Of a DNA stretch of 33,328 nucleotides, positions 4,703-29,643 are shown piece by piece. Both the position numbers and the translations under genes were made by a program. Numbering within the stretch: the stretch's first letter is position 1; the number at the start of each line of letters is the position of its first letter. This stretch comes from a virus. Location: IMG/VR virus record IMGVR_UViG_3300028571_000005, positions 1 through 33,328 of that record; one strand, 5' to 3'. The notes under the pieces were generated by a model, which saw only the letters and a list, made by a program, of their open reading frames with translations, searched no databases and was not told the origin of the DNA.

Positions 4703-6075
4703 TGGCTATCCTGAAAAACACCGTGTTCGTTGGCTCGCCCATCTACGACGTCGACCCCGGCGCCGAAACGTGGGCCCGCACCCTCAGCAACGCCCAAGGA
4801 GACATTGCCGGGGCACTCGCGCTGCTCACCGACAACACGGAGGGCGACCACATCAACCACAGTGGGGGCATCCAGGGCGCGCTGCTGGGTATCCCCTGGG
4901 TCAACCAGGCCATGGGCGTCGGGCTGGGGCTCGATAGTGGGGGCGGGAAAAACGGCGGGGTGGTGTCCGGCGACATCTACAACTTTTTTCACATCGTCGT
5001 CATCGAACCCGGTGAGACTGAGGTGCGCGTCGAGATGACGCTGGCCAACCTCATCGACGGGTTCAATCCGCGCGGCCGCCTCTCGCTCGCCACCGACATC
5101 ACCACCGCCGTCGGGGACGACCTCGAACTGGCGATGCTCGACGGGGCTGGGGCCGGGCAGCGGACGTTCTCGTGCCTATTCACTGGGTGCGCCGCTGGTG
5201 TCGCGCTGTTCACGTTCTCGCTCGATTGCGAGCGCGAATCCGACAGCACCGTCCTCACCGACTCGACGGAAATCATCGACGTCATCATTCGCAAAAACCG
5301 TGAGGGTGTCGCCAAGCTGCAGGCCGCCCGCGACACCTCGGACCCGGTGCCTGTTGAGGCGCCAGCGTCGACGGAGGCGCTGTTTTTCCAGCAGATGGAT
5401 TCGGCGGTGTTCGCCCTCACCTTTGGCGAGCAGGCTCTCACCGGGTGGGCGACGTCGCGCCTCGACCGCAGCATCAACGGGGTCCTCGAGAACCTCACCG
5501 CCGCCCCCGCCGGCACCAATGCCGGGTACACCCACACCGAGAGCGCCCTCGTCGGCCCGACGCGCGACCGGTTCCGCGCCTTCACGCGCAAGACGTTCCC
5601 GAACGAGCCCATCCCCGTCATTCCCGTGATGTCGTTGTGCTTCGGTGGCATCAAGGACGACGGGGGATACCTCGTCAACCCGTCGTCGGGTGCGTCCGTT
5701 GCCGCCCGTCGAGCGTTCGCACCGTTCGCGGCGTCGGCTGCGTCGACGCAATTGGGAACCGCACGGTGCCGCATGCCCGACGTCCCTGATGGGGCGTCGT
5801 CGGTGCTGCGGTTCGCCATCCTCGCCGGCCAGTCGTCTGGTGTGGGGTGGACCAACATCCGCGCCCAGATGCAGATGGGCAGTGAGACCATCTCTGCCGC
5901 CACAGCCCTCACCCCGCTGACCGGTGCGTCCCACCTGGCGCTCCTCACTGGCACGGCCCTCGACATGAGGCGGGACCAGCGCGACAAATTGCAGGTGTTC
6001 CTGTCTCAGGTCGCCGGGGCGTGGAACGACACAAACTACTGTCTGCTGGCCGCCGCCGTCTGGATTCAGGAATGA
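4702..6075 (+). CDS. Putative minor tail / tip protein, unknown family
   Basis: A 457-residue protein. I chose ATG 4702, which shares a base with the upstream TGA (TGATG), over an in-frame GTG at 4693. It is rich in Ala, Gly, Thr and Asp with no transmembrane segment. A glycine-rich loop (GLGLDSGGGKNGG) lies near residue 75 and the last 60 residues look beta-rich. It is coupled to the hub gene and to the following gene, so it is probably part of the tail tip or a receptor-contacting structure. No family is recognised. Confidence 0.6.
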   Translation: MAILKNTVFVGSPIYDVDPGAETWARTLSNAQGDIAGALALLTDNTEGDHINHSGGIQGALLGIPWVNQAMGVGLGLDSGGGKNGGVVSGDIYNFFHIVVIEPGETEVRVEMTLANLIDGFNPRGRLSLATDITTAVGDDLELAMLDGAGAGQRTFSCLFTGCAAGVALFTFSLDCERESDSTVLTDSTEIIDVIIRKNREGVAKLQAARDTSDPVPVEAPASTEALFFQQMDSAVFALTFGEQALTGWATSRLDRSINGVLENLTAAPAGTNAGYTHTESALVGPTRDRFRAFTRKTFPNEPIPVIPVMSLCFGGIKDDGGYLVNPSSGASVAARRAFAPFAASAASTQLGTARCRMPDVPDGASSVLRFAILAGQSSGVGWTNIRAQMQMGSETISAATALTPLTGASHLALLTGTALDMRRDQRDKLQVFLSQVAGAWNDTNYCLLAAAVWIQE

Positions 6076-6737
6076 CCTCGCGACTCTTCTCCCGTCGATT
6101 CCTGCCCGCTGAGGCCGTCGTCGTGCACGCTGCCGCGACATCGGAGACCGCCCAGTCTCTCGTCGGGCGCCCACGGTTCGCGTTCGAGATGGCCACGGGC
6201 GCGTCAGCGGTGGCCGGCGAGCTCCCGATGGTCGAGAGCAACCCACAGGGGGGCACCGGGGTCGACATGAGCGGCCCACCATTCGGCCCTGCCCTGCTGC
6301 TGCCAGTCTGGGAGTGGGTCGGGAAACCAGACGGCGGGACGTCGCCAGCGAACTACCTCTCGGCCATCGGGTCGACGACGGCGACACTCCCACGGTTTCG
6401 CCTCTGGAACCGTCCCCACGCCGTCCGCTCCGACGGCAACGCCCCGCTTCAGCAGATGGTGTTTGCCCACCGCACGACGGCCAGTGCGGGCACGTCGACG
6501 GTGCTGCAAATCGTCATCCGCAACATCAACACCGGCATCGAAACGGTATTCACGAAAAACATCAACGCGACCGGGACCAGCGACTACACCGAGACCACCC
6601 TCGTCCCCACCGCGCCAGGCCAGAACGTGTTCGAGATTCGCGCGCGCACCACCTCGGGGACGCGCACCATCAACATCCGCTCCATGCTCCTCGCCGTCGG
6701 GGCCAAGCGCCGCCACGGCCTCACATTCCCCGGGTGA
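6072..6737 (+). CDS. Putative virion protein, beta-sandwich-like C-terminus
   Basis: A 221-residue protein starting at ATG 6072, overlapping the previous stop (ATGA); a longer in-frame start at 6021 would run deep into the upstream gene and is unlikely. Residues ~125-220 alternate hydrophobic and Thr/Ser residues (TSTVLQIVIRNINTG, FEIRARTTSGTRTINIRS), as in a carbohydrate-binding or Ig-like beta sandwich. It closes the tail-tip cluster before the lysis genes. An adhesin or accessory tip protein is plausible but not shown. Confidence 0.55.
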   Translation: MTSRLFSRRFLPAEAVVVHAAATSETAQSLVGRPRFAFEMATGASAVAGELPMVESNPQGGTGVDMSGPPFGPALLLPVWEWVGKPDGGTSPANYLSAIGSTTATLPRFRLWNRPHAVRSDGNAPLQQMVFAHRTTASAGTSTVLQIVIRNINTGIETVFTKNINATGTSDYTETTLVPTAPGQNVFEIRARTTSGTRTINIRSMLLAVGAKRRHGLTFPG

Positions 6738-6741
6738 CCTC

Positions 6742-7566
6742 ATGCTCACGACCGCGCGCCCCGACGTCTCCATCGCCGTCACTGGTGGAGGGACCAACGT
6801 CATCCCCCTCGCTGCTGCTCTGTTCGCCATCATCCGCCGCCTCGTCAGCGAGGGGCGCCACCCCCGGGCCCTGGTGGGCAGCAGCGCTGGCGGGCTGTCG
6901 GTGCTGGGCGCCGCCATGGGCATCGATGAGGAGCGACTGCAGGCCCAGCTGGAGGGCGCATGCAGCCGGGGCCGCCTCATCGATGGCGGGGCCCACAACC
7001 TGCTGACCATCGGGGCCTGGGCGTCCATGCGCGAATTCCGACGCAACGCCGAACTGGTCATCGGGCCCGACACCCGCCTGGGGTCTGCCCGCATCCCCGT
7101 CGCCTGCGTGGTCAGCGACCAGTGGACTGGGCGCCCGCGGCTGATTTCCTCGTGGGAGCACCCGAACGTCCTCGCCGTCGACCTCGCCTGCGCCACCGCC
7201 GCCATCCCCTATGTGTTCGAGCGCCAGAAAATCCGAGGCCTCGACGACCACCACTACGTCGACGGAGGCCTGGCCAAGAATCTCGCGAGTGACGAACTCG
7301 ACCGGTTCGGGTGCCCCGTCGTCTCGCTCCGGTTGCTCGAGCAACCCAGGGTGCCAGCCGAGCCCAATGGACCACTGGGTCGGCTGCTGGCGAACGCTGA
7401 GCTGCTGATGCACGCCAGCAACCACGCATGGGAGAGCGCTCACCCCGGCAGCATCGTCGTCGACGTCCCCGGGGAGAACGGGTTTGACTTCGACCTCTCG
7501 CGCGCCGACTCCGTCCGACGTCGCAAGGCCGGGCAGCTGGCTGGCGAGACCTGCCGCCTGCCCTGA
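6742..7566 (+). CDS. Patatin-like phospholipase
   Basis: A 274-residue protein with the full patatin signature: an oxyanion-hole glycine run TGGGTN (Gly15-17), the nucleophile elbow G-S-S-A-G with Ser48, the conserved ATAAIPYVFE segment (~151-160), and the second half of the catalytic dyad in YVDGG (Asp174). Patatins use a Ser-Asp dyad to cleave acyl chains from phospholipids. It has no signal peptide or membrane segment. It starts 4 nt after the previous stop and lies between the tail-tip genes and a holin-like gene, so it may degrade host membrane lipid at lysis, or it may be a virion enzyme acting at entry. The catalytic assignment is strong; the biological role is inference. Confidence 0.88.
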   Translation: MLTTARPDVSIAVTGGGTNVIPLAAALFAIIRRLVSEGRHPRALVGSSAGGLSVLGAAMGIDEERLQAQLEGACSRGRLIDGGAHNLLTIGAWASMREFRRNAELVIGPDTRLGSARIPVACVVSDQWTGRPRLISSWEHPNVLAVDLACATAAIPYVFERQKIRGLDDHHYVDGGLAKNLASDELDRFGCPVVSLRLLEQPRVPAEPNGPLGRLLANAELLMHASNHAWESAHPGSIVVDVPGENGFDFDLSRADSVRRRKAGQLAGETCRLP

Positions 7567-7599
7567 TGGTCTGGCCAACCTGCGAGGCAGCGGGATAGG

Positions 7600-7630
7600 C
7601 TGGGGGATGCGCGCCACAACACATCCCCAG
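7600..7630 (+). promoter_or_regulatory. Hairpin in the leader of the holin-like gene
   Basis: An imperfect inverted repeat, CTGGGGGATG at 7600-7609 and CATCCCCAG at 7622-7630, can form nine pairs with one bulged G and a 12-nt loop. It ends inside the AGGA that would serve as the ribosome binding site of the gene starting at 7639. Folding would partly hide that site, a plausible way to delay holin synthesis. The effect is inferred; the complementarity is visible. Confidence 0.5.
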
Positions 7631-7638
7631 GACGAAAC

Positions 7639-8028
7639 ATGACCCAAGGCATCGTCAGCACGATCGCCGACAACACCGGGGCCGTCGTCGCCGGCGGGGC
7701 CAGCTCTCTCGGGGCCCTCGCCTTCGCCGCCGGGCAAATCCCAATCCCTGCCGGCCTCCCGTCCGAGCTCGTCTGGGCCGCTGTCACGTTCGGGCCCCCG
7801 TTGGCCTATTTCGGCATCGCCATCCTCAAGGCGACCGCGAGCTACCACGTCACCCGTCGGCTCCGCGCCCAGGAGCGGGCCAACAAACTTCTCGAGGCCG
7901 GCCACGCCGTCGACGATGACGACGTCGAGCGCCACCTCGACGCCGCCGACCACCACGCCAGCTGGGCCAGCGCCCTCGGGCACGCCACCAGCGAGGTCGA
8001 CAGCGCCCGGAAGCGCAAGGCCTCGTGA
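7639..8028 (+). CDS. Holin-like small membrane protein
   Basis: A 129-residue protein with two hydrophobic segments suited to membrane spanning: about residues 13-35 (Gly/Ala-rich, uncharged) and 43-66 (ELVWAAVTFGPPLAYFGIAIL). A long charged C-terminal tail contains an acidic patch VDDDDVE and ends in KRKAS. Two helices plus a hydrophilic tail, directly before a gene for a candidate wall-degrading peptidase and after a phospholipase, is the layout of a phage holin. It is preceded by 72 non-coding bases with a hairpin overlapping its ribosome binding site, and its stop overlaps the next start (GTGA). Sequence identity alone would not prove a holin. Confidence 0.68.
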   Translation: MTQGIVSTIADNTGAVVAGGASSLGALAFAAGQIPIPAGLPSELVWAAVTFGPPLAYFGIAILKATASYHVTRRLRAQERANKLLEAGHAVDDDDVERHLDAADHHASWASALGHATSEVDSARKRKAS

Positions 8029-8663
8029 GCGCGCTCACCCGCCTCGGGTACGCCGACCCTCCCCGGGTACTGCACCAGGGGGCCAGCCAGTGGAGAGACC
8101 GCCTCGTCGGGCTCTCCGCCGACAAAAAACGCCACACCATGGGCAAGGTCGGGTGCGCCATCACCGACGTCGCCCAGGCCGTCCTCATCGTGCGCCAGGA
8201 GCACGCCACGCCCATCACCGTCCAGGCCAGAGGTCTCAATGCATCACCCCCGGTGTGGACGCCGGACCGGCCCGCGTCCGCCCGCATTGGGCGGCTGGTG
8301 CGCGCACAGGGCCTGCGGTGCGACGACCTCCCCATCGGCGATGACGGGGACGACATCTACACCGACCTCGACACCGCCGCCCACCGTGAGGCCATCATCA
8401 CCACCCTCAAGGCGCGCGGGGTGTGCATGCTGTGGGTCGACACCGACTCCTCCGACCTCGACACCGGCGGGAAACACTGGGTGCTCGCCCATGCCGCCCT
8501 CCTCGACGAGAGGGCCAAGGGCATCGTCGGGGTCGTCCACGTCTGCGACCCGGCCACGGCCCGTGTTGAGGGGCTGGACCTGCGGACGCTGAGCGGGTGC
8601 GTGATGTGGGGCAGCCGCCCTCGTCCCTACGCCGTCCGAGCTGTCCGCCCGATTCTGCGTTGA
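8025..8663 (+). CDS. C39/papain-like cysteine peptidase, candidate endolysin
   Basis: A 212-residue protein with the arrangement of a papain-fold peptidase of the C39-like type: the nucleophile in TMGKVGCAITDVA (Cys44 at the start of a helix), the catalytic His in GGKHWVLAHAA (His151), and a following acidic residue in VCDPA (Asp175). Such single-domain proteins beginning a helix with GC-x-x-T-D are frequent in phages. It has no signal peptide and overlaps the holin-like gene by GTGA, so export through holin lesions is expected. Cleavage of a peptidoglycan peptide bridge is the likely activity, making it an endolysin without an amidase or muramidase domain. The substrate is inferred from context. 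A promoter sits over its stop codon. Confidence 0.72.
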   Translation: MSALTRLGYADPPRVLHQGASQWRDRLVGLSADKKRHTMGKVGCAITDVAQAVLIVRQEHATPITVQARGLNASPPVWTPDRPASARIGRLVRAQGLRCDDLPIGDDGDDIYTDLDTAAHREAIITTLKARGVCMLWVDTDSSDLDTGGKHWVLAHAALLDERAKGIVGVVHVCDPATARVEGLDLRTLSGCVMWGSRPRPYAVRAVRPILR

Positions 8664-8694: not shown

Positions 8695-8769
8695 ATGGGC
8701 CGTCGTGGGCCTCGGGTCATCTGGTCATGGTTCGGCAGGCGCCATCCTTCGGGGTGGCGTTTGTTTTTG
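8695..8769 (+). ncRNA. Candidate short phage RNA between P1 and terminator
   Basis: Promoter P1 would start a transcript near 8695 that ends at the UUCG hairpin terminator, giving an RNA of about 75 nt. The region also holds an in-frame ATG (8695) opening a 43-codon frame, but that frame runs through the terminator stem and has no ribosome site, so an untranslated RNA is more likely. It could instead be a decoy or an antitermination target. Family unknown; existence is inferred from the signals. Confidence 0.4.
8740..8769 (+). terminator. Rho-independent terminator with UUCG tetraloop
   Basis: CGCCATCC (8740-8747) pairs with GGGTGGCG (8752-8759) around a TTCG loop (eight pairs, one G·T), followed at once by TTTGTTTTT. 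It closes the tail and lysis transcription unit. Confidence 0.9.
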
Positions 8770-8872: not shown

Positions 8873-8901
8873 TTGACAGCATGAGCGATAGCGCGCATAG
8901 T
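8873..8901 (+). promoter_or_regulatory. Candidate early promoter P2 (TTGACA-17-CATAGT)
   Basis: A perfect -35 TTGACA (8873-8878), a 17-nt spacer and CATAGT (8896-8901). The predicted start near 8909 gives a ~32-nt leader with GGAGA before ATG 8941. It is the first promoter after the lysis terminator and leads into the replication/recombination genes. The bases between the terminator and this promoter (8770-8872) show no gene. Confidence 0.7.
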
Positions 8902-12669: not shown

Positions 12670-13116
12670 ATGACCACCAAGAACGACAACGGGGCCGCGA
12701 CGGCCAGCGGCTACTTCGGGGCCGCGACGGCCAGCGGCTACAGCGGGGCCGCGACGGCCAGCGGCTACTGCGGGGCCGCGACGGCCAGCGGCGACAACGG
12801 GGCCGCGACGACCAGCGGCTACAGAGGGGCCGCGACGGCCAGCGGCGACAACGGGGCCGCGACGGCCAGCGGCTACTGCGGGGCCGCGACGGCCAGCGGC
12901 GACAACGGGGCCGCGACGGCCAGCGGCTACAGAGGGGCCGCGACGGCCAGCGGCTGGAATGGTCGGGTGCGCGGTGCCATCGGGTGCGCCCTGCTCCTCG
13001 TCGAGCGCGCCGACGACATGGTCATTCTCGCCGCCATCGGCGTCGTCGTCGACGGCGTCGTCGTCAAGGCCGACACCTGGTATTCGCTGAAAGGCGGGAA
13101 GCTCATCGAGGTCTGA
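12670..13116 (+). CDS. GAATASG-repeat protein (DUF7666-like C-terminus)
   Basis: A 148-residue protein. After seven residues come ten perfect-length 9-residue repeats, GAATASG followed by Y, D or W and one variable residue (residues 8-97). The remaining ~50 residues (RGAIGCALLLVERADD … VKADTWYSLKGGKLIEV) match my memory of the DUF7666 domain, which in other phages and prophages is also preceded by STAATSGY-type repeats. The repeats probably stack as a beta solenoid. Function is unknown in the family. It has its own ribosome site (GGAGA) and sits downstream of the recombination pair. Confidence 0.75.
   Translation: MTTKNDNGAATASGYFGAATASGYSGAATASGYCGAATASGDNGAATTSGYRGAATASGDNGAATASGYCGAATASGDNGAATASGYRGAATASGWNGRVRGAIGCALLLVERADDMVILAAIGVVVDGVVVKADTWYSLKGGKLIEV
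12691..12960 (+). repeat. Ten tandem 27-bp repeats inside the GAATASG gene
   Basis: Each 27-bp unit begins GGGGCCGCGACG and encodes GAATASGxx. Units are nearly identical at the DNA level; differences are concentrated in the last two codons (Tyr/Asp/Trp then Phe, Ser, Cys, Asn or Arg), with one Ala to Thr change in unit five. High nucleotide identity suggests recent expansion by slippage or unequal exchange, so copy number is likely to vary among relatives. Confidence 0.95.
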
Positions 13117-21316: not shown

Positions 21317-21325
21317 TGCTAGTGT
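21317..21325 (+). promoter_or_regulatory. Candidate late promoter P5, extended -10, leaderless type
   Basis: TGC-TAGTGT is an extended -10 (TGn plus TAnnnT). Seven bases separate TAGTGT (21320-21325) from ATG 21333, the same spacing as P4 and P6, with no Shine-Dalgarno sequence. A TTGACA lies at 21304-21309 but only ten bases upstream, out of register for a -35; it may be an operator or chance. Confidence 0.45.
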
Positions 21326-21332
21326 GCTGCGC

Positions 21333-22874
21333 ATGGACCTCTTCCAGTCGCAGTCGGACTCCCTCGTCGCCGCCATCCGTGCCGCAGCCTCGCAATCCGT
21401 CGAGGCCCAGGCCGCCGACGCGTGGGTGCGCATCCCGCTCAAGGCGGTGCTCAAGGCCGAGCAGGAGCGCCGCCCGCCCGGGCACATGGCCGACTCCCGA
21501 GCGTTCGCCCAGCGGTACCTGGGGAATCAGGGCGACCTCATCCGAGCGGCGTTGGCGTCGCGGTATCCGCTGTCGGCCGCACGAATGCCCATCGCCCCGC
21601 TGCCCTACATCCGGCAGTGGGCCCGCGCCGACTCTGGCTGCTACCAGAACGAGGCCACCCGCTCCCTCGTCGCCAAGTCCACCCGCGACCCGCTCCCGCC
21701 TGCAGACCCGCGAAACCTGATGTTCACCCATGGGCTCGAGGGCGCCCGGGTGTCTGAGGTCTGCCCCGAGTGCGAGCGCCGCGCCCGCAGCGGGGTGAAA
21801 TCGACGGCGACACACACGACGTGGATGCCAGCCATTGGCAACGACGACGGGCGCGCCATCGTCCAGCACTACTGGCCCCATGATGTCCTGGCTCTCTCAC
21901 ACCCCTCGTACCCCACCGAGGAGGAGGCGTTGATTTTCGTCGCCCTCCGCCAGGCCGACGGGGGTTGGCTCGGGTACCGACGGTTGTTCACCGAGGTGGA
22001 TGGGGTCGTTGATACCTGGGGCCCATGGGAGGTCGGGACGTGGGTCGAGGGGCAGGAGGAACGCGCACGGTGGGGTGAGTACGAGGGCAAACTTCTGCCC
22101 GTTGTCATCCTGCGGCTGGAGCCTGGCGACGGGGGTGTGTGGCCCGCGGCTGAGCGGGATAGCTACCTCGTCAGCGACCAGCTCAACACCTCCCGCTCCA
22201 ACATGGAGCACGTCACCGACCTCCAGGGACACAGCAATTTCGTCGTGTCGAGCGACACCGCCGACGAAGATGACCTTGGGGTTGCGCCTGACTCGCTCGT
22301 CAAACTTCGCACCGGGGACTCGGCCAACTGGGCGTCACCCACCCCGGAGCTTGAGCAAATGCGCGAGGGCATCGAGGAGAAGCAGCGCGCGGTCGCCGTC
22401 TCCCGGGGGAACGATGCCGGGGCCTACAGCGCCACCCCGGGGCCAGCCGAGAGCGGAATTGCGCGCGTCGTGGCCAAGTTCCCGCACGAACTCGCCCTCC
22501 GCGAATCCCGCGAGGCCGTGCGCCGGTTCGACGAGCGCCTCTGCCGCGTTGTCGTGGACGTGCTTGACAACTGGGGTGATGGGTCGTTCGGCGTCGACGT
22601 CGTCCCCCGCACCGTCCTCGCCCCGTCGGTGGTGTTCGAGGACCCCACTGCCAAACAGCAGCGGGCGGCTCTCAATCTCGACCTCGGGGCCATCAGTGGC
22701 GCCCAGTACGCCGTGGAGATTGGCCTGTACCCGTCGACGGAGAAGGCGGCTGAAGCGGGCTACCCGGTGCTGGCGGGGATGCAGGCTCCGGCGGCCGTTG
22801 CCACGTCGGTGTCGGCGTCGCTGCCGGCGCCTGTCGACACTGCGCCGGTGGTGACCGATGCCGCAGGGGAGTGA
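21333..22874 (+). CDS. Portal protein
   Basis: A 513-residue protein directly after the large terminase, the normal place and size for the dodecameric portal that forms the DNA entry vertex. The central and C-terminal parts fit the fold expectation: mixed alpha/beta crown and wing, with a helical region around SDQLNTSRSNMEHVTDLQG (~285-303) and EQMREGIEEKQRAVAVSRG, a probable stem and tunnel-loop area. A Cys pair EVCPECERR (~146-154) is an oddity. I chose ATG 21333 over GTG 21324, which overlaps the -10. Identification rests on gene order plus these helices. Confidence 0.82.
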   Translation: MDLFQSQSDSLVAAIRAAASQSVEAQAADAWVRIPLKAVLKAEQERRPPGHMADSRAFAQRYLGNQGDLIRAALASRYPLSAARMPIAPLPYIRQWARADSGCYQNEATRSLVAKSTRDPLPPADPRNLMFTHGLEGARVSEVCPECERRARSGVKSTATHTTWMPAIGNDDGRAIVQHYWPHDVLALSHPSYPTEEEALIFVALRQADGGWLGYRRLFTEVDGVVDTWGPWEVGTWVEGQEERARWGEYEGKLLPVVILRLEPGDGGVWPAAERDSYLVSDQLNTSRSNMEHVTDLQGHSNFVVSSDTADEDDLGVAPDSLVKLRTGDSANWASPTPELEQMREGIEEKQRAVAVSRGNDAGAYSATPGPAESGIARVVAKFPHELALRESREAVRRFDERLCRVVVDVLDNWGDGSFGVDVVPRTVLAPSVVFEDPTAKQQRAALNLDLGAISGAQYAVEIGLYPSTEKAAEAGYPVLAGMQAPAAVATSVSASLPAPVDTAPVVTDAAGE

Positions 22875-23619
22875 GGCCGCTGATGCCGTCGCCAAGCGCC
22901 TGGGTGACATCCTGGGCGCCGCCGAGGCCGAGGTGCGCCGGTTGCTGCTGCGGATGCAGACGGCGCCAGGGGAATCGACCCTGGCGCGCGCACAGAACAA
23001 CCTCATCGTCGCCGGGCAGGTCCGCCGCCGCATCGAGGCCCTGGGCGCCATCGTGATGAACGAGGGGGCGAAGGCGAGCGCGACGGCAGCCCTTGGCGAG
23101 GGGCAGCGCCTGGGTGTCACCCTCGACCCACAGACGGCCCGCCTTCTCGACGCCATCACCGAGGACCGGCTCGCTGAAATCTCCAAGACGTGGGGCCTCG
23201 CCGCCGACGAGGTTGCGCGCGCGGCCCGAGTGGCGACGACGACGGGCGGGGACCTCTCGCGCCTCATCGACGATGTCCAGGCGAAACTGGGTGGGGCCCG
23301 GGCAGCCTCGTTGTCGGCCGTCGACTCCATGACAATGGCAGCCGGGCGTCAAATCACCATCCTCGACGCCGAGGCCAGCGGGGCTGACATCGTCTACGGG
23401 TACGGGGGGCCAGTCGACGCCATCACCCGCCTGTTTTGCCGCGAGCACCATTCCCGCCTGACCTCGCAGGTCTATACCAGGCAAGCGCTCGACCGCCTCA
23501 GCAACCCTGGGCAGCCCACCCCGGTGTCGGTCTACCTGGGCGGGTACAACTGCCGCCACAACCTGCAGCCGATGACGAGGGCGATGGCGAAAGAGAAGGG
23601 GTACCGGGTGGTCGAGTGA
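22858..23619 (+). CDS. MuF-like head morphogenesis protein
   Basis: A 253-residue protein overlapping the portal end by 17 bp. The long N-terminal part is helical. The C-terminal ~65 residues have the MuF/SPP1 gp7-type pattern: AITRLFCREHHSRL (Cys194, His197) … TPVSVYLGGYNCRHNLQPM (Cys232, His234), the Cys/His set typical of this fold. MuF-type proteins are minor head components that sit near the portal and may be ejected with DNA. Position after the portal agrees. Confidence 0.8.
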   Translation: MPQGSEAADAVAKRLGDILGAAEAEVRRLLLRMQTAPGESTLARAQNNLIVAGQVRRRIEALGAIVMNEGAKASATAALGEGQRLGVTLDPQTARLLDAITEDRLAEISKTWGLAADEVARAARVATTTGGDLSRLIDDVQAKLGGARAASLSAVDSMTMAAGRQITILDAEASGADIVYGYGGPVDAITRLFCREHHSRLTSQVYTRQALDRLSNPGQPTPVSVYLGGYNCRHNLQPMTRAMAKEKGYRVVE

Positions 23620-24107
23620 GCATCACGAAATCGCCACCACCACAACCTCCGCGCGTTGACGTCCGCAAGGTCGCCGAACTGGTGGCGTCCCTCGTCATCG
23701 GGCACATCCGCGAGCGCTGCGAACAAGGCCTCGACATCGACGGGAAGGCGTTCCTTGGGTACGACGACGACTACGCCGACACCCGCACCGCCCTGGGCCG
23801 CAACACCCGCCCCGTTGACCTGCTGATGACCGGCGGGCTGATGGGTGCGGTGCAGGTCGTCGAGCGCACCGACGACGTCGTGACCATCGGGATTGGCACC
23901 GGCACATCACCGCAGCGGCGCGCCCCGACGAAAGGTAACCGCCGGAAACGGTCGGGAGAGAAGCGCGGCCCGCCCCACAACCTCCTCGGGAAATGGCATC
24001 AGGATGGCGCCGGAAATAACAAGCGCCGCCGGTGGTTCGGGGTGTCGAAGAAGGGTGACGCCGAAGTCAAGCGAGAGGCGTCACGTCGCAAGCCGCCGCT
24101 TATGTAA
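23616..24107 (+). CDS. Virion morphogenesis-like protein
   Basis: A 163-residue basic protein starting at GTG 23616 (GTGA overlap). The pattern DIDGKAFLGYDDDYA … NTRPVDLLMTGGLMGAVQVV … PPHNLLGKWHQDG … RRWFGVS resembles phage virion morphogenesis/neck proteins in which a short beta core is followed by a basic, partly disordered tail. A head completion or connector role is suggested by position between the MuF-like protein and the scaffold candidate. Family assignment is moderate. Confidence 0.55.
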   Translation: MSITKSPPPQPPRVDVRKVAELVASLVIGHIRERCEQGLDIDGKAFLGYDDDYADTRTALGRNTRPVDLLMTGGLMGAVQVVERTDDVVTIGIGTGTSPQRRAPTKGNRRKRSGEKRGPPHNLLGKWHQDGAGNNKRRRWFGVSKKGDAEVKREASRRKPPLM

Positions 24108-24124
24108 GCGCATCACAGCGCCGT

Positions 24125-24154
24125 TTGACAGTGAGCTATGTAGGTGGTTAACGT
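24125..24154 (+). promoter_or_regulatory. Candidate late promoter P6 (TTGACA-18-TAACGT), leaderless type
   Basis: TTGACA (24125-24130), an 18-nt spacer and TAACGT (24149-24154, TAnnnT), then exactly seven bases to ATG 24162. No Shine-Dalgarno sequence. It would start the scaffold and capsid transcripts. TGTAGGTG in the spacer resembles the TGTAGTG words around P3. Confidence 0.6.
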
Positions 24155-24161
24155 GTTGCAT

Positions 24162-24353
24162 ATGGACGACACCGAAACCTCCCCAGCTGTCACCGCCGTC
24201 ATCGAAGACGCCGCCGCCGTCGTTGCCGCCGTCGCCGAAGTCGACCCCGACCTCGCCGATGCCGTCGCGTCCGTCATCGAGGAGGCGCTGGCCATCGGTG
24301 GCGCGTCGGAGCCTCCCGCTGACCCCGCTGCTGATGCGTCGGTGACAGCGTGA
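24162..24353 (+). CDS. Small acidic protein before the scaffold candidate
   Basis: A 63-residue acidic, Ala/Val-rich protein (DAAAVVAAVAEVDPDLADAV), likely one or two helices. ATG 24162 fits promoter P6; the upstream GTG at 24144 would be inside it. It overlaps the next gene by GTGA. Possibly an assembly factor; no family recognised. Confidence 0.55.
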   Translation: MDDTETSPAVTAVIEDAAAVVAAVAEVDPDLADAVASVIEEALAIGGASEPPADPAADASVTA

Positions 24354-24958
24354 GCGGTGCTGTCCCTGCCATCGTCCCCGCTGCTGATGCGGTTGCTGGT
24401 GCAGCGCCTGCTGGTGCTGCTCCTGTCGTTGCTCCTGCGCCCTCGAAGGCCGCGAGCGCCCTCGCGTCGTTTCGGGCCAAGCGCGCGAGCGTGGCTGCTC
24501 CTGCTCCTGGTGCTCCTGCCCCGGCTGCTGACGGCGCACCCGTCGTCGCCCAGGTTGCGGCGGCACCCACCATCCCCGCCGACGTCGCCGACGGTGCCAA
24601 GCGCTGGGCCGCCCACGTCAAGGCCGAGGCCGCGCGCATCACCGCCGCCGCCGAGGGTCTGAGCGACGAGGACAAAGCCCTGCTCGCTGGCGTCGACGAC
24701 GTCGCGCTGAAGGCTCGCATCCTCGACCGCCTCAAGGCTGGTGCCCCTGCGGTCGCGCCGGCGACGAAGGCCGCGCCTCGTCCTGCCGGCGGCCCTCCCG
24801 CTGCCAGTTCGGTCGACTTCGCGGCGGCCATCAAGGACCCCCGCGCCATGGCTGAGGCCAAAGCGAAGGACCCCAAGGGGTTCGCCGATTTCTTTTCCTC
24901 CGCGCTGAAGAGCGCGGGGCGTAAGTCCACCCTCGACGGCGCTCCCAAGCGCACCTGA
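24350..24958 (+). CDS. Probable capsid scaffold protein
   Basis: A 202-residue protein starting at GTG 24350 and ending 30 bases before the major capsid gene. It is dominated by Ala, Pro, Val, Lys and Asp, with low-complexity N-terminal third (APAGAAPVVAPAPSKAAS), a helical middle (AKRWAAHVKAEAARITAAAEGL, residues ~83-104 in part) and a helical C-terminus DFFSSALKSAG ending in basic residues. These are typical of scaffolds: elongated, helical, with a basic tail that contacts capsid protein. No protease is visible. The function is inferred from composition and position. Confidence 0.65.
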   Translation: MSGAVPAIVPAADAVAGAAPAGAAPVVAPAPSKAASALASFRAKRASVAAPAPGAPAPAADGAPVVAQVAAAPTIPADVADGAKRWAAHVKAEAARITAAAEGLSDEDKALLAGVDDVALKARILDRLKAGAPAVAPATKAAPRPAGGPPAASSVDFAAAIKDPRAMAEAKAKDPKGFADFFSSALKSAGRKSTLDGAPKRT

Positions 24959-24988
24959 CGAGGGCGGCATCCCCACAAGGAGGCCCAC

Positions 24989-26002
24989 ATGGGTACCACG
25001 AACGTCGCTTCGGTCTCGTCCCACATCCTCACCGAGCTCATGGGCAACGCCCTGGCTCCTCTGTTCCGCCGGTATATGGCGCTGCGGCTGCTCAACCGCA
25101 GCAACATCGACGGCGACGGCGGCCTGAAGCGCAAGATTCCGACGCAGGAGGCCATCGCGGCCGCCTACGCCGACGTCGAAGGCGTCGAGCCTGGCACGCC
25201 CGCCGAGCTGACCTACGGGACGGCCATCGAACTCACCCCCTCGGCGATGGTGCAGTTCGTCCGTCTGACCATGAAGGCCATCCGGCGCATCATGCCCGGC
25301 GCGACCCGGGAGAGCGTCATCGCCGCCGTGGCGAGCGGCAACCCCGAGTCCCTGGCCCTCATCGCGCACGCGGTGCAGCTCTCCCTCGACGCGCACTTCC
25401 GCGCGGCCGAGGTTGAAGCGTTGTCAATGGCCAACGACTTCACCCGCACCAGCGGCACGACCAACACCGTGTTGAGCGCGGCCGCGATGCTCGACGCCGT
25501 CACGAAGTACCGCGCGGGCACCGTCACCGCGCTGGCGACGTCTGGCGCCCCCACGAACATGAACAGCGCGTTCGTGCTCGACGACATCGGGGTGGGGCAG
25601 CTCATCAACGTGCTCCAGACCGGCAGTGGCACCGGCCTCGCCGCCCTCTGGTCGAACCCCAGCATCGACGTGAAGCTCGGCGATGCGTCGGTCATCAGCC
25701 AGGAGGACGGGCTGCGCGGCTACTGGATGGGCATCCCCGTCCTCGCCTGCGACAGTGCGCTCCAGGCCCAGGACGCGACCGACCGATTCGGGATGCTCAT
25801 CGGCATCGGGACCAACGAAACCGCCGAGCCCGGCAGCGTGCGTGGCGCCGGCGAGTTCTGCGAGGGACACACGCCCTCGGTCGAGTTCGCTCGCCACATC
25901 GAGAACGACGTCATCAACGTCGTCTCCCGCTGGGAGTGGGCGGTCGCCAAGCACACCGACCTCCACGGGGTCGAGATGCAGTACAAGAAGACCTTGACCT
26001 GA
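24989..26002 (+). CDS. Major capsid protein (HK97-fold expected)
   Basis: A 337-residue protein with the strongest ribosome site in the genome, AAGGAGG, 7 bases before ATG, as expected for the most abundant product. It is soluble, mixed alpha/beta, and has a likely spine-helix segment at ~112-150 (REsvIAAVAS … AHAVQLSLDAHFRAAEVEAL) and a beta-rich C-terminal half with a domain-like loop SALQAQDATDRFGMLIGIGT. It follows the scaffold candidate and is followed at once by a terminator. HK97 fold is expected from order and size, not demonstrated. Confidence 0.82.
   Translation: MGTTNVASVSSHILTELMGNALAPLFRRYMALRLLNRSNIDGDGGLKRKIPTQEAIAAAYADVEGVEPGTPAELTYGTAIELTPSAMVQFVRLTMKAIRRIMPGATRESVIAAVASGNPESLALIAHAVQLSLDAHFRAAEVEALSMANDFTRTSGTTNTVLSAAAMLDAVTKYRAGTVTALATSGAPTNMNSAFVLDDIGVGQLINVLQTGSGTGLAALWSNPSIDVKLGDASVISQEDGLRGYWMGIPVLACDSALQAQDATDRFGMLIGIGTNETAEPGSVRGAGEFCEGHTPSVEFARHIENDVINVVSRWEWAVAKHTDLHGVEMQYKKTLT

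Positions 26003-28032: not shown

Positions 28033-28033
<1 letters not shown>
27128..28033 (+). CDS. Head-tail connector-like protein with N-terminal beta domain
   Basis: A 301-residue protein starting with ATGA overlap. Residues ~1-165 are beta-rich (VVVGRRYLIRVADAVQVVSVVRK). Residues ~170-300 are helical and open with LTPDELVRVYPEIKSL followed by hydrophobic helices and an ARTETSFDRLL segment, which resembles gp6-type head-tail connector rings. The combination is unusual: a connector-like helical bundle appears joined to an extra beta domain. Position between head and tail genes agrees with a connector. Confidence 0.58.

Positions 28034-29639
<1,606 letters not shown>

Positions 29640-29643
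<4 letters not shown>

What the first reader, a model, noticed from the sequence alone, without database searches (positions are those of the whole stretch)
6742..8663. Lysis cassette of phospholipase, holin-like protein and cysteine peptidase
Seen: a complete patatin signature (Gly15-17, Ser48 in GSSAG, Asp174), then a two-helix membrane protein, then a C39/papain-like peptidase (Cys44, His151, Asp175), in tandem and closed by a terminator. Phage endolysins are usually amidases, muramidases or endopeptidases with other folds, and a spanin or esterase is the usual third factor. A patatin could attack the inner or outer membrane at lysis, taking the place of a spanin or mycolyl esterase. That it acts in lysis rather than in entry is inference.
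Basis: partly seen in the sequence, partly recalled or inferred. Interest (0 to 1): 0.8.

Follow-up and report, generated by a model that had tools for sequence, protein, structure and literature searches.

The report
Phage lysis genes beside a phospholipase
A complete small phage genome ends its late genes with a patatin-type lipid-cutting enzyme, a two-helix membrane protein and a cysteine-peptidase endolysin, which looks like an ordinary holin-endolysin pair with an unusual phospholipase added, possibly to help break the host membrane.

Summary
6742-7566 is a patatin (Pfam E=4.7e-14). 7639-8028 is a 129-aa protein with two hydrophobic stretches. 8025-8663 is a remote C39-like cysteine peptidase. 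A conserved intrinsic terminator lies at 8740-8768. One relative (IMG/VR 3300036985_004744; 74-80% identity) keeps all three genes, their order, the NTGA overlap of genes 2 and 3, and the terminator, with dN/dS about 0.14-0.32.

The peptidase misses Pfam's C39 models on its own. It matches a profile of nine viral C39-like proteins (30 bits; best of 1,000 shuffles 8). Two of these carry GH25 muramidase domains, so they are endolysins; two others sit beside small membrane proteins. No other peptidoglycan hydrolase or spanin-like lipoprotein was found. Holin plus C39-like endolysin is therefore well supported, and C39 endolysins are already known (560 records of actinobacterial phages).

The patatin's role is not settled. 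It starts 4 nt after a tail gene and 72 nt before the holin-like gene, so entry remains possible. A patatin/holin-like cassette was already proposed for Wolbachia phage WO. The combination here is a new variant of a known kind; use of the patatin in place of a spanin is plausible but untested.

The parts
6742..7566 (+). patatin-like phospholipase, 274 aa; Gly15-17 loop, Ser48 (GSSAG), Asp174 (DGG)
   Evidence: Pfam PF01734 E=4.7e-14; 80% identical in relative; dN/dS about 0.14
7639..8028 (+). holin-like membrane protein, 129 aa, two hydrophobic segments and a charged C-terminal tail
   Evidence: no family match
8025..8663 (+). C39-like cysteine peptidase, 212 aa, probable endolysin; Cys44, His151, Asp175
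   Evidence: profile of viral C39-like proteins: 30.4 bits, hhalign E=3e-6; C-terminal half alone ranks above 2000 shuffles
8025..8028 (+). GTGA overlap of holin-like stop and peptidase start (TTGA in the relative): likely translational coupling
8740..8768 (+). intrinsic terminator closing the late operon
6021..6737 (+). minor tail-like protein gene immediately upstream; 4 nt between its stop codon and the patatin start
   Evidence: weak match phrog_1446 minor tail protein E=0.004; junction

Best explanation
7639-8663 is a holin-endolysin pair: the two-helix protein permeabilises the inner membrane and the C39-like cysteine peptidase then cuts peptide bonds in peptidoglycan. The patatin in front of it is a late-expressed phospholipase, probably made from the same transcript, that most likely hydrolyses membrane phospholipids at the end of infection and so helps disrupt the membrane (inner membrane from the cytoplasm, or outer membrane after holin triggering), in place of or in addition to a spanin. 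Shown: gene identities at family level, synteny, purifying selection, terminator, kinship of the peptidase with endolysin domains. Inferred: holin activity, peptidoglycan as substrate, phospholipase activity, and the timing and place of patatin action. The holin-endolysin half alone would deserve about 0.75.
For: Conserved three-gene order, junctions and terminator in two genomes with terminal repeats of 71 and 127 bp. C39-like relatives fused to GH25 (Pfam 3.6e-21 and 2.3e-13) or lying next to small membrane proteins. No other peptidoglycan hydrolase found by Pfam or PHROGs among the main genes and no lipoprotein-signal ORF fitting a spanin. Patatin match and catalytic residues. Precedent: patatin plus holin-like cassette at the tail module of phage WO (PMC9203015; PMC3173496).
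Against: The patatin is tightly joined to the tail gene (4 nt) and separated from the holin-like gene by 72 nt. No patatin beside the C39 genes of other viral contigs. Hydrophobicity of the holin-like protein is moderate. The peptidase homology is remote, and its profile members were picked with a motif that includes the Cys region, so only the rest is independent evidence (C-terminal half 10.5 bits against a best shuffle of 8.4; the short N-terminal part gives nothing). Both structure predictions failed (pLDDT 33 and 37).
Confidence: 0.5

Rival explanations
1. Holin and endolysin as above, but the patatin is a virion or tail-tip enzyme that attacks membrane lipids during entry.
For: Directly follows the tail genes and starts 4 nt after the last one, a spacing nearly kept (5 nt) in the relative. 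Patatins of phage WO were proposed for entry or exit (PMC3173496).
Against: It also directly precedes the holin-endolysin pair in both phages, before the shared terminator; no tail-attachment domain found; no signal or membrane anchor recognised.
Confidence: 0.25
2. The patatin is a cytoplasmic accessory enzyme (lipid remodelling, fatty-acid supply, superinfection exclusion or a defence-type effector) that happens to lie between tail and lysis genes.
For: Nearest characterised relatives by sequence are CapV-type CBASS phospholipases (NCBIfam E=3e-7, PADLOC E=2e-7, PDB phmmer E=1e-3). Patatins have been called auxiliary genes in viromes (PMC9469726, PMC9723777).
Against: Scores far below the CBASS equivalog cut-off (30 of 200 bits); the neighbours scanned match no defence model; conserved place at the lysis module.
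Confidence: 0.2
3. The 212-aa protein is a head or scaffold maturation protease, not an endolysin.
For: It is a cysteine peptidase by homology only; its substrate is not shown.
Against: Lies after the tail genes, far from the putative portal, scaffold and capsid genes (21324-26002); overlaps the holin-like gene; relatives include GH25-C39 endolysins.
Confidence: 0.05

Closest known systems
Putative patatin lytic cassette of Wolbachia phage WO (PMC9203015)
   Same: Patatin-like phospholipase next to a small holin-like protein at the tail module of a tailed phage, proposed for lysis
   Different: WO has an ankyrin protein as third gene and no endolysin, and infects a host in which peptidoglycan was not detected; here the third gene is a C39-like peptidase
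C39-domain endolysins (LysA N5 domain) of mycobacteriophages and Gordonia phages (PMC3314691)
   Same: C39-like cysteine peptidase used as an endolysin domain
   Different: No detectable profile similarity between that subfamily and this protein; partnered with a LysB esterase in Rockstar and LastHope, not with a patatin
GH25-C39 endolysins and stand-alone C39_2 proteins of environmental viral contigs (L050, L063, L049, L052, L057, L068, L076)
   Same: W...G...T-[IM]-G..GCA-x-T, H-[FW]-V and D-P motifs; some next to small membrane proteins
   Different: This protein has no extra catalytic or binding domain and has DPA in place of DPW; no patatin nearby in the others
CapV-type CBASS patatin phospholipases
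   Same: Closest characterised patatins by sequence
   Different: Far below cut-off, no cyclase gene recognised beside it, phage late-operon context

Membership tests
Patatin-like phospholipases (PF01734) | Score above the curated Pfam cut-off | tested here: met
   53.5 bits against 27.7; relative 54.2
Patatin-like phospholipases (PF01734) | Ser in GxSxG and Asp in DGx catalytic dyad | tested here: met
   Ser48, Asp174 invariant in three sequences
Patatin-like phospholipases (PF01734) | Oxyanion loop GGGx[R/K]G | tested here: inconclusive
   GGG kept, but TNV replaces x[R/K]G in both phages
Patatin-like phospholipases (PF01734) | Phospholipase activity | not testable with these tools
   needs enzyme assay
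Peptidase C39_2 (PF13529) | Score above the curated Pfam cut-off | tested here: not met
   No hit even at E up to 10; so it is called C39-like and is not filed in PF13529
Peptidase C39_2 (PF13529) | Ordered Cys-His-Asp with homology to accepted members | tested here: met
   30.4 bits to a profile of nine proteins, five of the six tested passing PF13529; hhalign E=3e-6; C-terminal half alone above 2000 shuffles
Holin | Small protein with one to four transmembrane segments and charged tail beside the endolysin gene | tested here: met
   129 aa, two hydrophobic segments by Kyte-Doolittle, 4-nt overlap with the peptidase gene
Holin | Timed membrane permeabilisation | not testable with these tools
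   needs expression experiment
Lambda-type holin-endolysin-spanin cassette | Spanin (lipoprotein or fusion) gene near the endolysin | tested here: not met
   No ORF with a lipobox signal in the window by a simple pattern scan
Phage WO patatin cassette | Patatin plus holin-like gene adjacent at the tail module | tested here: met
   against PMC9203015
Phage WO patatin cassette | Ankyrin-repeat third gene, no endolysin | tested here: not met
   third gene is the C39-like peptidase
CBASS CapV phospholipase | Score above NF041079 cut-off and adjacent cyclase | tested here: not met
   30 of 200 bits; the adjacent genes scanned match no defence-system model

The most novel reading that the evidence does not exclude
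The patatin is the third lysis factor of this phage lineage: a phospholipase that removes the outer or inner membrane enzymatically, working with holin and C39-like endolysin in place of a spanin.
Probability: 0.25. Interest if true: 0.7.

Novelty: new variant of a known kind. Interest (0 to 1): 0.45.

Why it matters
Some phages of diderm hosts lack a recognisable spanin, and how they open the outer membrane is an open question. A phospholipase in a conserved late operon with holin and endolysin, outside Wolbachia, gives a simple three-gene construct in which enzymatic membrane removal can be tested in a laboratory strain. It also extends the C39-like endolysin group to a remote, single-domain member.

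Tried and rejected
Direct searches: P0001 and P0003 gave no tblastn match in 50,697 phage records, and only one relative in IMG/VR for each of the three proteins. The genome-contig search gave only a distant Bacteroides patatin, used for catalytic residues. The PDB profile search for the peptidase gave only chance MCR and CcdB matches. AlphaFold with two or three sequences failed for both enzymes, so no fold search was run. Mycobacteriophage N5 and Bacteroidota C39_2 profiles did not recognise P0003 above shuffles. Two queries for the viral C39 group found nothing in the isolate phage collection, nor did a made-up consensus. A hairpin before the holin-like start codon was dropped: z=-1.6 and not conserved. 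CBASS effector reading rejected. No paper names the relative's metagenome. The host could not be identified: terminase is nearest to Gram-negative siphophages at about 31%, primase to Acidithiobacillus phage AcaML1 at about 33%, too weak to decide.

Full report
What is in the sequence. The window is a virus record of 33,328 bases whose first and last 71 bases are identical, so it is probably one complete circular map. They close the late gene block, after tail-like genes, and are followed by a stem-loop with a T-run at 8740-8768 (MFE -22.5 kcal/mol, z=-5.4) and then a promoter-like site at 8873 in front of the early genes.

Conservation. One relative, IMGVR_UViG_3300036985_004744 (34,070 bases, 127-bp terminal repeat), is syntenic over most of the genome. 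It keeps the three genes in the same order at 80%, 78% and 74% identity, the TGACCTC(G)ATG junction between tail gene and patatin, the NTGA overlap between holin-like and peptidase genes, and the terminator. Approximate dN/dS is 0.14, 0.25 and 0.32, in the range of the structural genes. These are real genes under purifying selection.

The patatin. Pfam PF01734 matches at E=4.7e-14. Ser48, Asp174 and the three glycines are invariant in the relative and in a 25%-identical Bacteroides patatin. The loop after the glycines (TNV) lacks the usual basic residue. The closest characterised patatins are CapV-type CBASS effectors, far below their cut-off. Patatins are rare in isolate phage records: nine records matched a generic bacterial query.

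The peptidase. By itself it matches nothing convincing in Pfam, PHROGs, NCBIfam or PDB, and profiles of mycobacteriophage N5 domains or bacterial C39_2 domains do not recognise it. DNA patterns for [T-]I/M-G-x-x-GCA-x-T run over IMG/VR returned nine distinct C39-like proteins. Of six tested, five pass the PF13529 cut-off; two (L050, L063) carry an N-terminal GH25 muramidase, so they are endolysins. A profile of these nine scores the window protein at 30.4 bits (E=1.3e-8 among 1,002 sequences; best shuffle 7.9) and hhalign gives E=3e-6 over 146 columns; Cys44, His151 and Asp175 fall on the invariant Cys, His and Asp. Because the pattern selected for the Cys region, the C-terminal half was tested alone: both phage proteins still outrank all 2,000 shuffles, though narrowly; the short N-terminal part gives no signal. 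Near the stand-alone members, L076 has a two-helix protein overlapping the C39 gene and L049 has a small membrane protein just after it.

The middle gene. It has two hydrophobic segments and a charged tail, and overlaps the peptidase gene by 4 nt. With the peptidase it reads as a holin-endolysin pair. The families scanned show no other peptidoglycan hydrolase in the genome, and a lipobox scan finds no spanin candidate. The absence rests on simple or profile methods and many genes remain unassigned.

Role of the patatin. For lysis: conserved adjacency to the holin-endolysin pair, position before the shared terminator, and a published precedent in phage WO (PMC9203015). For entry: tight coupling to the tail gene and a 72-nt gap before the holin-like gene. 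Against a general partnership: no patatin near the C39 genes of the other viral contigs. The sequence evidence does not decide; lysis is judged somewhat more likely.

Novelty. C39-type endolysins (560 records; PMC3314691) and patatin-holin cassettes (phage WO) are each known. Their combination, a patatin together with a true endolysin, was not found in the papers or phage records searched. It is a new variant of a known kind, and the spanin-replacement idea is a testable hypothesis, not a finding.

Noticed in passing
12686-12955: Ten tandem 27-bp units (89% match) encoding GAATASGYx-type repeats, downstream of the RecE-like exonuclease gene.
   Followed up: no
28378-28599: Perfect 120-bp tandem duplication inside the glycine-rich 536-aa gene 28033-29643, which is poorly conserved in the relative and may be a tail fibre or receptor-binding gene.
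   Followed up: no
8873-8901: Sigma-70-like promoter (10 of 12, spacer 17) just after the late terminator, pointing into the early genes.
   Followed up: partly
22858-23619: Protein with a MuF-like C-terminal pattern by eye, next to the putative portal gene; no meaningful Pfam or PHROG match.
   Followed up: no
6721-7983 (- strand): 420-aa open frame antisense to the patatin, probably a high-GC shadow ORF; partly open in the relative too.
   Followed up: partly
L050 and L063: Viral contig endolysins joining a GH25 muramidase (with SH3 in L050) to a C39-like peptidase domain.
   Followed up: partly
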